From Actinophytocola algeriensis (GTDB lineage Bacteria; Actinomycetota; Actinomycetes; Mycobacteriales; Pseudonocardiaceae), in contig NZ_JACHJQ010000001.1 of assembly GCF_014203735.1 (NCBI RefSeq), forward strand, positions 669,269 to 733,268: a DNA stretch of 64,000 nt. Direction: 5' to 3'. Shown in pieces: positions 3,435 through 58,324 of this stretch. A model generated the notes under the pieces. It worked only from the letters and a program-made list of their open reading frames with translations. It did no database searches and was not told where the DNA came from. The position numbers and the translations under genes are program-made. Each line of letters opens with the position of its first letter. Within the stretch, counting starts at the first letter, position 1.

Positions 3435-3590
3435 TCATGAAGGGGTCCTTCATCACATCGAGCGTTGCGAAGGGGTCCTTCATCACGTTCAGCGCAACGA
3501 AGGGGTCCTTCATCACGCCGGTTGTTACGAAGGGCCCCTTCGTGGCATCGCAGCTGTCTCGAAAGCCTCTTTCGGGGCAGGGGCAGCGTT
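3435..3590. repeat. Array of four 13-bp palindromes at exact 30-bp period
   Basis: Palindromes of the form GAAGGGGTCCTTC start at 3439, 3469 and 3499, with a variant GAAGGGCCCCTTC at 3529. Each of the first three is followed by ATCAC and the start-to-start distance is exactly 30 bp. A related GAAAGCCTCTTTC element follows near 3561. The same units recur at 14.3, 50.4 and 58.2 kb. Because 30 is a multiple of three, open frames of 10-residue repeats (MKGSFIT-like on one strand, MKDPF-like on the other) run through the array; I regard these as by-products, not genes. Confidence 0.85.
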
Positions 3591-5237: not shown

Positions 5238-6652
5238 CCGGGGCCACGGCACCGTTCCTCGCGGAGTACCCGGAGTACGCCACGACGTCCCGCCTCGACG
5301 AACTGCGCGGCACCGAGTACAGCTACCTCGACGAGCAGGGCCACCTGTACCTGGACTACACGGGCGCGGGCCTGGCGGCCCACGCGCAACACCGCGCACA
5401 CGCGGACCGCCTGGCGGCGACACTGTTCGGCAACCCGCACTCGGTGAACCCGACGAGCGAGGCGGCCACCGCTCTCGTGGAGGCGGCGCGGCGGCGTGTG
5501 CTGGAGCACTTCAACGCCTCCCCGGCCGAGTACACAGCGGTGTTCACCCCGAACGCGACGGGCGCCGCGCGGCTGGTGGGGGAGGCGTACCCGTTCGGCA
5601 GGCGCACGAGACTCGTGCTGACGTTCGACAACCACAACTCGGTCAACGGCCTCCGCGAGTTCGCCCGCCGAGCCCACGCCACAACGGTGTACGTGCCGAC
5701 GAAGGCGCCGGAACTGCGGGTGTCCGCCGACGCGCTGACCTCCGCGCTGAGCCGGGGACGGGGTCTGTTCGCTTATCCGGCGCAGAGCAACTTCAGCGGC
5801 GTGCGCCACCCGCTCGACTGGGTCGGCCACGCGCAGGAGCGCGGCTACGAGGTGCTGCTGGACGCGGCCGCGTACCTGCCGACGAGCATGCTGGACCTGA
5901 GTGCAGTGCGCCCGGAGTTCGTGCTGGTGAGCTGGTACAAACTGTTCGGCTACCCGACGGGAGTCGGCTGCCTGGTCGCCAGGCGTGACGCGCTGGCACG
6001 GCTGCGTCGGCCGTGGTTCTCCGGCGGCACGATCCAGGCGGTCAGCGTGGGCATGCCCTGGCACACGATGGCCCCGGACGAGTCCGCCTTCGAGGACGGC
6101 ACGCTGAACTTCCTGTCCATTCCGGACGTCCACTTCGGACTGGACTGGCTGTCGGGCATAGGTGTGCCACTGGTGGGAACGCGGGTGGCGTGCCTGACAG
6201 GCTGGTTGCTGCGATGCCTGAACGGCCTGAAACACACCGACGGTACCCCGATGGCCCGCGTCTACGGCCCGACGACGGTCGAGGCCAGGGGCGGCACGGT
6301 GGCGTTCAACTTCCTGGACGCGACCGGCAAGGTGGTGGACGAACGCCTGGTGGCGGCGGAGACGTCGGCGGCGGGCATCTCGCTGCGCACCGGCTGCTTC
6401 TGCAACCCGGGAGTCGGCGAGGACGCGTTCGGCCTGGACCTGGGCGCACTGAAATCCCTGCGCCACGCGAAGACGGACTCACTGGACGAGTACCTGAGGC
6501 TGATCGGCCTCCCGTCAGCCGGCGCGATCCGCGTGTCGTTCGGCCTGGTGTCCACGGTGGCGGACGTGGGCCGGTTCGTCGAGTTCGCGGAACGCACGTA
6601 CCGGGACCGCGTCACCGGCACGGCAGGTCTCCCGCCCCGCGACCGCTGCTGA
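5234..6652 (+). CDS. Class V aminotransferase, molybdenum-cofactor-sulfurase-like
   Basis: A 472-residue PLP-dependent fold type I enzyme. The PLP lysine is in WYKLFGYPTG (about residue 235). The persulfide-loop motif RTGCFCNPG (about 382) is the hallmark of the N-terminal NifS-like domain of Moco sulfurases (Mocos/ABA3), where the first Cys carries sulfur. The C-terminal MOSC domain of the eukaryotic enzymes is absent. By family knowledge it should act as a cysteine desulfurase. Its acceptor is unknown. The start overlaps the stop of the ABCG transporter by 4 nt, so the two are expressed together. That pairing is unusual, because no molybdenum-cofactor gene lies in the window. Confidence 0.85.
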   Translation: MTGATAPFLAEYPEYATTSRLDELRGTEYSYLDEQGHLYLDYTGAGLAAHAQHRAHADRLAATLFGNPHSVNPTSEAATALVEAARRRVLEHFNASPAEYTAVFTPNATGAARLVGEAYPFGRRTRLVLTFDNHNSVNGLREFARRAHATTVYVPTKAPELRVSADALTSALSRGRGLFAYPAQSNFSGVRHPLDWVGHAQERGYEVLLDAAAYLPTSMLDLSAVRPEFVLVSWYKLFGYPTGVGCLVARRDALARLRRPWFSGGTIQAVSVGMPWHTMAPDESAFEDGTLNFLSIPDVHFGLDWLSGIGVPLVGTRVACLTGWLLRCLNGLKHTDGTPMARVYGPTTVEARGGTVAFNFLDATGKVVDERLVAAETSAAGISLRTGCFCNPGVGEDAFGLDLGALKSLRHAKTDSLDEYLRLIGLPSAGAIRVSFGLVSTVADVGRFVEFAERTYRDRVTGTAGLPPRDRC

Positions 6653-13893: not shown

Positions 13894-13995
13894 GGGCCCT
13901 TTCTGGGCCCGGTCGCCTTGGGCCGGTACGCGACCCTGTCCGGCTGCCTCGGCAAAGTCGTGCGGTTCTCGGCGGCCGGTGTTGCCCTCCGGGGC

Positions 13996-14112
13996 TGCCC
14001 TCCGGGGGCTCCTCGCCGGAGGGGCAGGTCTCTGGGATGGCTCCTCGGTTTCGTTGTTTGGCTGCGGTTGGGTGCGGGTCTGCCTGCCATCCCGTCGACC
14101 TCCCTACGGGCT
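13996..14112 (+). repeat. 117-bp intergenic repeat module, copy 1
   Basis: Base for base, this stretch is the reverse complement of 50597-50713. It starts with an imperfect hairpin (CTCCGG/CCGGAG with flanking G and C runs) and ends with the CTGCCATCCCGTCGACCT motif followed by ctacGGGCT. Here it runs straight into the long hairpin element. At 50.6 kb it runs straight into the TCCGCC flank. It contains no gene. Confidence 0.85.
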
Positions 14113-14218
14113 ATCACACCGGCTCAAGGGGGCGGTTTTTCGACTTTGCTGCCGGTTCCGTTGGTGGTGCCCCCTTGAGCCGGTGTGATCGGGCTTCGCC
14201 AGGTCGACGGGATGGCAG
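14084..14218. repeat. Long nested inverted-repeat (hairpin) element, copy A
   Basis: Two nested perfect inverted repeats. The outer arms are 14084-14101 and 14201-14218 (18 bp); the inner arms are 14113-14133 and 14169-14189 (21 bp), enclosing a 35-nt loop. Unpaired 11-nt segments separate outer and inner stems. The diverged copy at 23921-24060 keeps the design and shows compensatory changes in the inner stem. Confidence 0.9.
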
Positions 14219-14255
14219 GGAGCCCCTGTGTGGCGGGCTTCCGCCTTTGCTCGGT

Positions 14256-14475
14256 TGGCCTTCGTGCCGTGAAAGGCGCTTTCAGGGCGTGGCCCGATGT
14301 CATGAAGGGGCCCTTCATCACACCGGGCGCAATGAGGGGGCCCTTCATCACGGTGAGCGCAACGAAGGGGTCCTTCATCACGCCGGAAGTTATGAAGGGG
14401 TCCTTCATCGCATCGAGCGTTGGGAAGGGTCCTTTCGAGGCATCGGTGATGCCGTCAACGCGCCTTTCGCGGCAA
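14256..14475. repeat. Palindrome array with five units at 30-bp period, flanked by GAAAGGCGCTTTC
   Basis: A GAAAGGCGCTTTC palindrome near 14270 is followed by five GAAGGGGNCCTTC-type palindromes starting at 14304, 14334, 14364, 14394 and 14424, every 30 bp exactly. A degenerate GCGCCTTTC half-element follows near 14461. Spacers are partly shared with the array at 3435-3590 (for example CATCGAGCGTTG and AGCGCAACGAAGG). The whole 13838-14684 spacer holds no convincing gene; frames through it are repeat-derived. Confidence 0.88.
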
Positions 14476-14592
14476 TCGCACACAGCCCGGTCCCGCGCAG
14501 TCGCCGGTGCCCAACCCCCACCCTGTCCCGGGGGCGTCCCGCCTTGCCAGCTTACCGGTTGGCGCGGCAGAAATCAGGCGAAAGGGCCCACC

Positions 14593-23804: not shown

Positions 23805-23930
23805 TTTTGTCCTCGCCGGACGGGCTTTGCCTCCGGCGACTCCTCGCCGGAGGGGCAGGTCTCCGGGATGGCAGGGGGCTGGCAACGGGGCTGGTTTGGC
23901 AGGGACTCTGTGAGGTGGTCTGCCTGCCAT
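23805..23930 (+). repeat. Diverged copy of the intergenic module preceding the hairpin
   Basis: Contains CTCCTCGCCGGAGGGGCAGG, then GGGATGG and TGCCTGCCATCCC, in the same order as 13996-14112, but with extra sequence. The first part (TTTGTCCTCGCCGGACGGGC, then TTTGCCTCCGGCG) recurs at about 58122-58155. Confidence 0.7.
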
Positions 23931-24060
23931 CCCGTCGACCTCACTACGTGCTATCACACCGCGCCGAGGGGGCCGTTCCAGCGTTTGCTGCCGGTTTGGA
24001 TGTTGGTGCCCCCTCGACGCGGTGTGATCGGGCTTCGCCAGGTCGACGGGATGGCAGGCA
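23921..24060. repeat. Long nested inverted-repeat (hairpin) element, copy B
   Basis: Outer arms 23921-23941 and 24040-24060 (21 bp, perfect); inner arms 23953-23973 and 24008-24028 (20 of 21 paired); 34-nt loop sharing TTTGCTGCCGGTT and GTTGGTG with copy A. Relative to copy A, three inner-stem base pairs are changed on both sides (G-C to C-G, C-G to G-C, A-T to G-C), which keeps pairing intact. Confidence 0.9.
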
Positions 24061-24381: not shown

Positions 24382-24454
24382 GGTGAGTGACGGGACTTGA
24401 ACCCGCGACATCCTGGACCACAACCAGGTGCTCTACCAGCTGAGCTACACCCAC
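24382..24454 (-). tRNA. tRNA-His (anticodon GTG)
   Basis: Cloverleaf on the minus strand. Acceptor GTGGGTG pairs with CACTCAC; the anticodon stem is CCTGG/CCAGG with loop TTGTGGT (anticodon GTG); the T-loop is TTCAAGT; the discriminator is C, as required for histidine. The extra G at position -1 is encoded at 24455. It lies 64 bp downstream of the oligoribonuclease-gene strand order's opposite end, that is, beyond the orn stop on the same strand. Confidence 0.97.
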
Positions 24455-50359: not shown

Positions 50360-50580
50360 GCGATGCCACGAAAGGCCCCTTCGGGACACTCGGTGCGATG
50401 AAGGACCCCTTCGTAACGCCCGCTGCGATGAAGGACCCCTTCGTCACGTCCGGTGTGATGAAGGGGTCCTTCGTTGTGCTCACCGTGGTGAAGGACCCCT
50501 TCGTCACGTCCGGTGTGATGAAGGGGCCCTTCATGACACCGCCACAGCCCCGAAAAGCGCCTTTCACGGCTCAAGGCCAA
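50360..50580. repeat. Palindrome array with six units at 30-bp period
   Basis: Palindromes of GAAGGACCCCTTC or GAAGGGGTCCTTC type start at 50370 (variant with GAAAGG), 50400, 50430, 50460, 50490 and 50520, every 30 bp exactly, followed by GAAAAGCGCCTTTC at 50552. The left flank (GAGACAGCTGCGATGCCACGAA) is the reverse complement of the right end of the array at 3.4-3.6 kb. The 50322-50749 spacer consists only of this array and the 117-bp module. Confidence 0.88.
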
Positions 50581-50596: not shown

Positions 50597-50713
50597 AGCC
50601 CGTAGGGAGGTCGACGGGATGGCAGGCAGACCCGCACCCAACCGCAGCCAAACAACGAAACCGAGGAGCCATCCCAGAGACCTGCCCCTCCGGCGAGGAG
50701 CCCCCGGAGGGCA
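50597..50713 (-). repeat. 117-bp intergenic repeat module, copy 2 (no hairpin inserted)
   Basis: Identical in reverse complement to 13996-14112. On its GGGCT side it continues directly into TCCGCC and GCTCGGTTGGCCTT; at the 14-kb locus the same flank follows only after the extra 127 bp that hold the hairpin element and a second GGGCT. Confidence 0.85.
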
Positions 50714-50749
50714 CACCCCGCCGAAGAAACGCCAACAGCGCGACTCAGA

Positions 50750-58121: not shown

Positions 58122-58265
58122 GTTTGTCCTCGCCGGACGGGCTTTGCCTCCGGCGCCTGCGCACCCTCACGACGTCCGTTGTGCCGTGAAAGGCGCTTTC
58201 AGGGCGCTCACCGTCCTCAACGCGCCTTTCACAGCGCCGGCGATGTCCTGAAAGCGCCTTTCACG
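58122..58265. repeat. Mosaic repeat spacer with GAAAGGCGCTTTC palindromes
   Basis: Begins with the TTTGTCCTCGCCGGACGGGC segment seen at 23810, then GTGCCGTGAAAGGCGC (with TTTCAGGGCG) identical to 14256-14281. Palindromes or half-palindromes start at 58188 (GAAAGGCGCTTTC), 58218 (CGCGCCTTTC part) and 58250 (GAAAGCGCCTTTC), spaced 30 and 32 bp. The 58095-58324 spacer holds no gene. Confidence 0.82.
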
Positions 58266-58324
58266 GCATACCAGCCCACACAACGACCACGCGAAGACCC
58301 GACCCCAGCCACAGCACCAGTGAA

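What the first reader, a model, noticed from the sequence alone, without database searches (positions are those of the whole stretch)
14084..14218. Nested hairpin element with compensatory base-pair changes
Copies at 14084-14218 and 23921-24060 share the design of outer stem, inner 21-bp stem and a loop of about 35 nt. In the inner stem three pairs differ between copies but on both sides (G-C to C-G, C-G to G-C, A-T to G-C). Only one difference is uncompensated. Covariation of this kind indicates selection for, or copying that preserves, secondary structure, either as RNA or as a cruciform. The loop sequence TTTGCTGCCGGTT is also kept.
Basis: seen in the sequence. Interest (0 to 1): 0.8.

Follow-up and report, generated by a model that had tools for sequence, protein, structure and literature searches.

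The report
Foldback element from actinomycete conjugative elements
The two hairpins in this window are scattered copies of a folded DNA element whose home is at one end of conjugative gene islands in one actinobacterial family, where it may help the single-stranded form of the island become double-stranded.

Summary
In detail: both copies have an 18-bp outer and a 21-bp inner stem, with three compensated differences and one uncompensated. Two 3-bp mini-hairpins between the stems make a four-way junction. This Actinophytocola-like genome has 27 full-length copies and some fragments. The family occurs in 115 of 200 sampled genomes of its bacterial family (36 of 46 genera); elsewhere only weak matches were found. 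No Rfam 15 match was found. Covariation is strong. The resident form lies at the int-distal end of AICEs, tRNA-integrated conjugative elements with pSAM2-type RepSA, near the distal att site. Of 67 listed RepSA genes in genomes with listed elements, 35 have one within 15 kb (chance about 0.7), 33 of 35 in one fixed arrangement. In 31 AICE-type copies mismatches are 80 A.C to 14 G.T, so the folded strand is the minus, rep-sense, strand; a mini-hairpin loop there mostly follows the GNA rule of stable DNA mini-hairpins. Dispersed copies, including the window's two, lack that strand bias (82 to 66). Best reading: a single-strand-origin-like site of AICEs that gave rise to REP-like dispersed repeats. 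AICE residence is shown; the sso function and how the repeats spread are inferred.

The parts
14009..14021 (-). copy 1, small hairpin CTCC-TCGCC-GGAG (loop GGCGA on the minus strand)
   Evidence: sequence; same hairpin with covarying stem in 45 rows: pair 14-25 UA 26/CG 18/GC 1, pair 13-26 GC 41/CG 3/other 1
14022..14041 (-). copy 1, conserved segment GGGCAGGTCTCTGGGATGGC, resembles the right outer arm
   Evidence: conserved in own copies and relatives; alternative pairing with the left arm only partly supported
14084..14101 (.). copy 1, outer stem left arm (18 bp)
14102..14110 (.). copy 1, left mini-hairpin CCC-TAC-GGG
   Evidence: pair 23-30 CG 24/AU 2/other 1 of 27 rows
14113..14133 (.). 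copy 1, inner stem left arm (21 bp)
14134..14168 (.). copy 1, apical loop of 35 nt
14169..14189 (.). copy 1, inner stem right arm
14192..14200 (-). copy 1, right mini-hairpin; minus strand GGC-GAA-GCC, a GNA triloop
   Evidence: GNA mini-hairpins described in PMC4686876 (passages)
14201..14218 (.). copy 1, outer stem right arm
23840..23852 (-). copy 2, small hairpin CTCC-TCGCC-GGAG
23853..23872 (-). copy 2, conserved segment
23921..24060 (.). copy 2, four-way-junction hairpin (outer 23924-23941/24040-24057, inner 23953-23973/24008-24028)
   Evidence: model R1, 150.4 bits, E 4e-34
50597..50720 (-). a deleted relic: left outer arm and its left flank only
   Evidence: match to query 1-29 and sequence; model R1 only E 0.1 there

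Best explanation
The family is a cis-acting site of AICEs (pSAM2-like, tRNA-integrated elements with a rolling-circle Rep). It is a ~140-nt four-way-junction hairpin plus a small loop-conserved hairpin, folded on the strand that carries the sense of rep, tra and int, and it lies beside attP in the circular form. The most likely role is a single-strand origin (sso): when rolling-circle replication exposes that strand the hairpin folds, stabilised by a GNA mini-hairpin, and recruits host RNA polymerase or primase to make the second strand. Shown here: the family, the covariation, the AICE position and arrangement, the one-strand folding bias of AICE-type copies. Inferred: that the exposed strand is the rep-sense strand (general knowledge of rolling-circle plasmids, recalled), and the priming. 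The dispersed chromosomal copies, including the window's two, are derived intergenic repeats, from at least 7 listed copies per genome up to 26 in the own genome; they keep the palindrome but not the one-strand bias, so probably no longer act as origins. How they spread is not known.
For: Structure and covariation. Restriction: 115 of 200 family genomes; order sample 21 of 200, of which 18 this family and 3 weak others (E 8.5e-6 to 4.7e-4); class sample own plus one weak (5.9e-4) of 197. Architecture: of 20 left flanks, chosen by me from single-type elements, 15 have Int and RepSA both '<' on the left, 13 of these also FtsK/Tra '<', 13 a tRNA outside Int; Pfam RepSA 1.4e-150, FtsK_SpoIIIE, Phage_integrase, GntR in 10 proteins tested. 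tRNA-derived repeats flank the element in 13 of 19 sets, the distal one at +139 to +1951 in 11, +3683 and +4141 in two; in the own genome at +188 (35 bp) with RepSA, FtsK, GntR and a weak Int match on the Rep side. RepSA co-location 35 of 67, expected about 0.74, arrangement 33 of 35. One-strand bias: AICE-type A.C 80 to G.T 14, representatives 47 to 10 (p 8e-7), by pair position 22 to 7 (p 0.008); difference from dispersed representatives p 0.011. GNA triloop on the minus strand in 31 of 44 triloops of AICE-type and unclassified representatives, mirror TNC 0. Precedent: ICEBs1 sso1, orientation-specific stem-loops (PMC4595007, passages).
Against: TAGCGW (CS-6-like, recalled motif) in 0 of 31 AICE units, so not the known ssoA type. 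32 of 67 RepSA have no listed element within 15 kb; both lists were cut at 150 rows. Arrangement exceptions: G051 and G097 (Rep about 300 nt away, same strand), and, in rows left out of that count, one G072 RepSA 14.2 kb away on the wrong side; among 8 RepSA neighbours three point '>'. A fixed arrangement could be inherited from one ancestor. The wobble bias does not separate ssDNA from RNA. The GNA loop is just as common in dispersed copies (35 of 43 triloops). The stretch beside the small hairpin in AICE-type copies is A-rich on + (45% against 16% background), so U-rich on the minus strand, as in an intrinsic terminator. The dso was not located.
Confidence: 0.5

Rival explanations
1. A structured non-coding RNA of AICEs, transcribed from the minus strand, starting near the hairpin base and ending at the small hairpin plus U-rich stretch; scattered copies are its relics.
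For: Minus-strand wobble bias in AICE-type copies; small hairpin with constant loop and covarying stem; A-rich + strand flank, 45% A against 16% background.
Against: GNA triloops with variable N are a DNA stability rule (PMC4686876, passages); the small stem is 4 bp; no promoter or transcript was looked for; the own dispersed copies lack the U-rich stretch.
Confidence: 0.2
2. A bidirectional terminator or insulator between convergent transcription units, in AICEs between cargo and the att end and on the chromosome between convergent genes.
For: 0 of 164 copies overlap genes called by my script; of 127 gaps with both neighbours 60 are convergent and 14 divergent.
Against: A terminator needs no four-way junction, no one-strand bias limited to AICE-type copies and no fixed arrangement to Rep. 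Avoiding genes and promoters is also what harmless insertions do.
Confidence: 0.12
3. A REP- or MITE-like non-autonomous mobile element moved by a transposase, which also happens to sit in AICEs.
For: 26 dispersed copies in the own genome and 7-16 listed in several others, with genome-specific stems; paired inverted copies in G174; one copy inverted in place between two species; an IS30-like protein (HTH_38, rve) is a neighbour of 3 of 164 elements.
Against: No Y1 transposase (PF01797) in the own genome, while 5 of 14 control genomes ring; no transposase family among the 25 commonest Pfam families of 103 of 123 nearest neighbours of dispersed copies (169 families in all, the rest not shown); at four sites where one of two sister genomes lacks the hairpin, parts of the unit remain, so these are losses and no clean empty site was seen; constant AICE position.
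Confidence: 0.1
4. Another cis site of AICEs, such as a transfer locus or an accessory of the integrase near attP.
For: Position beside attP in the circular form.
Against: Distance to att ranges from +139 to +3683 among sets with AICE genes, loose for an integrase accessory; known clt sites are short repeats bound as dsDNA (recalled).
Confidence: 0.06

Closest known systems
single-strand origins (sso) of rolling-circle plasmids and ICEs, e.g. ICEBs1 sso1
   Same: Non-coding, stem-loops on one strand, constant arrangement on an element with a rolling-circle Rep; structure counts more than sequence (PMC4595007 and PMC5714925, passages).
   Different: No CS-6-like motif in 31 units; much longer hairpin with four-way junction; no functional test; has dispersed chromosomal relatives.
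REP/BIME and ERIC-type intergenic palindromic repeats (recalled)
   Same: Short palindromic repeats, many copies, intergenic, often near 3' ends of genes.
   Different: Resident form is part of an AICE; four-way junction; no Y1 transposase in the own genome.
attC sites of integrons (recalled)
   Same: Strand-specific folded hairpins beside accessory genes.
   Different: The att repeats are tRNA 3' ends apart from the element; no cassette arrays were noticed (one locus, L080, has three elements 2.4-3.1 kb apart).

Membership tests
single-strand origin (sso) | lies on a replicon with a rolling-circle initiator | tested here: met
   RepSA PF20199; Int and RepSA in 15 of 20 chosen flanks; 35 of 67 RepSA with element within 15 kb
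single-strand origin (sso) | orientation-specific relative to leading-strand synthesis | tested here: inconclusive
   constant arrangement to rep in 33 of 35, but dso and displaced strand were not determined and the arrangement may be inherited
single-strand origin (sso) | forms stem-loops as one single strand | tested here: met
   covariation, one-strand wobble bias in AICE-type copies, DNA fold z -5.9 for the own AICE copy; RNA not excluded
single-strand origin (sso) | promotes second-strand synthesis, lowers ssDNA | not testable with these tools
   needs an assay
ssoA subtype | CS-6 loop motif TAGCGW (motif recalled) | tested here: not met
   0 of 31 AICE units
Rfam RNA families | match to a curated model | tested here: not met
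   window: only two tRNAs at gathering threshold; 10 other loci: only tRNAs; lax scan of 13950-14500, best E 0.15, all below gathering scores
REP/RAYT system | Y1 REP transposase in the genome | tested here: not met
   PF01797: 0 matches in the own genome, 5 of 14 controls ring

The most novel reading that the evidence does not exclude
A new class of dispersed bacterial repeat born from replication origins of conjugative elements: folded single-strand origins that escape from AICEs and multiply in host chromosomes, possibly moved in trans as rolling-circle single strands by the AICE Rep, evolving genus-specific but still self-complementary stems.
Probability: 0.22. Interest if true: 0.8.

Novelty: new variant of a known kind. 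Interest (0 to 1): 0.62.

Why it matters
As far as I know, second-strand origins of actinomycete AICEs are poorly defined. A structured, alignable family with a constant place in AICEs of one bacterial family gives a concrete candidate that can be cloned and assayed, could explain host restriction of these elements, and could help build vectors for antibiotic-producing Pseudonocardiaceae. If the dispersed copies come from it, it is also a new source of REP-like repeats. No description was seen in the listings of paper searches (open-licence library only; five papers were then looked at by passages).

Tried and rejected
Inverted tip: after it seemed that the hairpin tip is flipped relative to its flanks in about a third of own copies. 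This was an artefact, because loci matched on the minus strand had not been turned; withdrawn.

Coding: the left segment reads ATGTCCTCGCC... as a peptide start, but a 1-nt deletion in some rows (G084, G113 and Saccharomonospora types) and stem-type covariation speak against coding.

Three-way pairing: that the left segment always covaries with the left arm (my note) was too strong. 89% of cells pair, but pair 48-120 fails in 13 of 45 rows; a longest-match test was modest (6.5 own arm, 5.7 other arms, 4.9 shuffled).

Phage, plasmid and viral spread: no blastn match of one AICE copy in the phage and plasmid collections; 18 viral contigs with a 17-mer carry no model match.

The first gene caller misjudged starts and was replaced. 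Clean empty sites were sought between two sister genomes: at four sites one genome lacks the hairpin but keeps a part of the unit (right arm at two, left part at two), at one the element is inverted, and for one (L072) the fetched stretches held no counterpart.

Rows dropped: L027 (half copy) from the element set; 8 of 172 hits as duplicates; 6 of 51 left out of alignment A2, five as outliers and one near-duplicate. Elements of G000, G017 and G072 were left out of the Rep count; with them one own RepSA fits the rule (8.2 kb) and one of two listed G072 RepSA lies 14.2 kb from an element on the wrong side. One element of that list came, the rest. RepSA of G174 and G118 were not among the 150 listed, so '1 of 68' for multi-copy genomes is not a full test. 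68 of 164 elements stayed unclassified; their mismatches are A.C 168 to G.T 64. G133 copies are not in the dispersed set. 21 of 164 had no match to the right mini-hairpin pattern. Of 123 nearest neighbours of dispersed copies 103 were scanned.

Full report
What is in the sequence. Both copies are as described. Copy 1 is an 18-bp outer stem (14084-14101/14201-14218) and a 21-bp inner stem (14113-14133/14169-14189) with a 35-nt loop; copy 2 lies at 23921-24060. Between the stems each side carries a 3-bp mini-hairpin, so the fold is a four-way junction. Three inner pairs differ with compensation, one without. Single-strand DNA folding of copy 1 gives -58.1 kcal/mol, z -10.2. At gathering thresholds Rfam 15 matches only two tRNAs in the window.

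The family. The own genome (9.73 Mb, 23 contigs) holds 27 full-length matches, one half copy (L027) and fragments. A 27-row alignment supports 45 pairs in four helices: 94.3% of cells paired, 20 pairs with changes on both sides, score 0.195 against 0.061 in shuffles. The structure was named by me from copy 1 and the consensus. A covariance model from it finds the family in 115 of 200 genomes of the family (the tool scores at most 16 candidates a genome, so copy numbers there are lower bounds). In the order sample 21 of 200 match, 18 of them this family and three weak matches elsewhere; in the class sample the own genome and one weak match of 197. A pattern of 21 fixed bases in the 84,980-species collection gave 62 stretches, titled Pseudonocardiaceae genera or Pseudonocardiales bacteria (genera placed from memory). 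The pattern came from the alignment, so that search is not independent.

More of the unit. To the left lie a conserved segment like the right outer arm and a small hairpin with loop TCGCC and covarying stem (pair 14-25: UA 26, CG 18, GC 1 of 45 rows). Pairing of the left segment with the left arm, which would make a switch, is only partly supported. In the genus of G017 several copies lack the inner hairpin, with both sides of the gap adjacent; GGGC repeats stand at the joint.

Home of the element. Clustering 870 neighbour proteins of 164 distinct copies showed recurrent AICE genes: a protein I call Pra-like (name recalled, no Pfam match) beside 23 elements, always left and '<'; GntR type in 16, all left; DUF218 in 8, six left; RepSA in 8, seven left, three of them '>'; tyrosine integrase in 7, five left. 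Common families such as ABC transporters (11 elements) and response regulators (8) recur too. Pfam confirms RepSA, FtsK_SpoIIIE, GntR, DUF218 and Phage_integrase and PP2C. In 20 left flanks of 13.5-20 kb, chosen from single-type elements, 15 have Int and RepSA transcribed away from the element; 13 of these also have FtsK/Tra, and 13 a tRNA just outside Int. The other five are solo or decayed islands, or (L291) RepSA alone pointing at the element. Repeats of the tRNA 3' end lie on both sides in 13 of 19 sets; in five of the other six less than 1 kb of right flank was at hand, in G003 6 kb held none. The own genome has such an AICE on C3 with copy L024 at its end, a tRNA-Lys at the other, and a 35-bp att repeat at +188. 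In the family sample 159 of 200 genomes have RepSA. Of the 150 RepSA listed, 67 lie in genomes with listed elements; 35 of these have an element within 15 kb (about 0.74 expected), 33 in the same arrangement. Both lists were cut by the tools, and the elements of G000, G017 and G072 were left out; with them one more RepSA fits and one does not.

Two populations. In the multi-copy genomes G042, G079, G084, G133, G174, G187 and G118, 1 of 68 listed copies is near a listed RepSA; the RepSA of G174 and G118 were not listed. Dispersed copies form genome- or genus-specific sets (mean identity 0.88-0.95 within, 0.34-0.68 between). No copy of 164 overlaps a called gene, and of 127 gaps with both neighbours 60 are convergent; in the same loci 95 of 397 gaps over 150 bp are, element gaps included.

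Which strand folds. Under a strand-symmetric mutation process A.C and G.T mismatches should be equal. In 31 AICE-type copies they are 80 to 14, in 20 representatives 47 to 10 (p 8e-7), by pair position 22 against 7 (p 0.008). In 65 dispersed copies they are 82 to 66, in 11 representatives 17 to 14, by position 15 against 13. In 68 unclassified copies they are 168 to 64. AICE and dispersed representatives differ at p 0.011. Representatives share ancestry, so p-values are optimistic; the position test is less affected. So AICE-type copies are kept foldable as one single strand, the minus strand in window terms, where A.C becomes G.T or G.U. That strand has the sense of rep, tra and int. The right mini-hairpin on that strand has a G-N-A triloop with varying N in 31 of 44 triloops of AICE-type and unclassified representatives (10 of 17 and 21 of 27), the mirror form in none; dispersed copies have it in 35 of 43. 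GNA loops closed by G-C pairs are exceptionally stable DNA mini-hairpins (PMC4686876, passages).

Mechanism. Rolling-circle elements need a site where the exposed single strand folds and host enzymes start the second strand (PMC5714925, passages). ICEBs1 has such an sso, orientation-specific and with stem-loops (PMC4595007, passages). AICEs with RepSA replicate by rolling circle (PMC3218068, passages), and Streptomyces rolling-circle plasmids are stated to comprise rep, dso and sso (PMC3583192, passages). Strand, position, constant arrangement, DNA-type loop and restriction to one host family fit an sso. Not shown: the displaced strand, the priming, and any transcript. The ssoA motif is absent. 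The RNA-gene reading remains open.

Window copies. They are dispersed copies without one-strand bias; copy 1 is followed by another palindromic array. The own genome has no Y1 transposase, and between two sister genomes of another genus missing hairpins were losses, not clean empty sites. The compensated differences are real, but most likely record descent from different founder copies and palindrome-preserving copying, not a present RNA function. That is an inference.

Noticed in passing
window 14299-14440, 3494-3546, 50380-50541: Arrays of a palindromic ~30-bp unit (GATGAAGGGGCCCTTCATCAC and variants), often right of dispersed own copies; a second repeat family of this genome.
   Followed up: no
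window 58182-58268 and 14265-14288/14451-14474: Palindromic TGAAAGGCGCTTTCA-type repeats, including a perfect 22-bp inverted pair 43 nt apart.
   Followed up: no
L065:5846-6084 against L311:6088-5846: At one orthologous site the element with its left flank is inverted in place between the two genomes of one genus, G017 and G072.
   Followed up: partly
L309 near 6149, L310 near 5902-5917, L316 near 6331-6382, L317 near 6368: At four orthologous sites one of the two sister genomes lacks the hairpin but keeps part of the unit, right arm at two and left part at two.
   Followed up: partly
L156, L157, L158 (G174): Elements in inverted pairs 121-124 nt apart, forming larger composite repeats.
   Followed up: no
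L140, L141, L143, L144, L145 (G133): Copies lie within 800 nt of contig starts, so they probably belong to or border longer repeats that broke the assembly.
   Followed up: no
L286, L295, L296, L303: Element left near a tRNA with or without GntR-DUF218 but without int, rep and tra matches: decayed islands.
   Followed up: partly
L065:2086-3243, L002, L212: An IS30-like protein (HTH_38, rve) is a neighbour of three elements in three genomes.
   Followed up: partly
window 23921-24060 and 24382-24454: Copy 2 lies 322 nt from the 3' end of a tRNA-His gene; the only one of 28 own loci of about 3 kb with a tRNA.
   Followed up: partly
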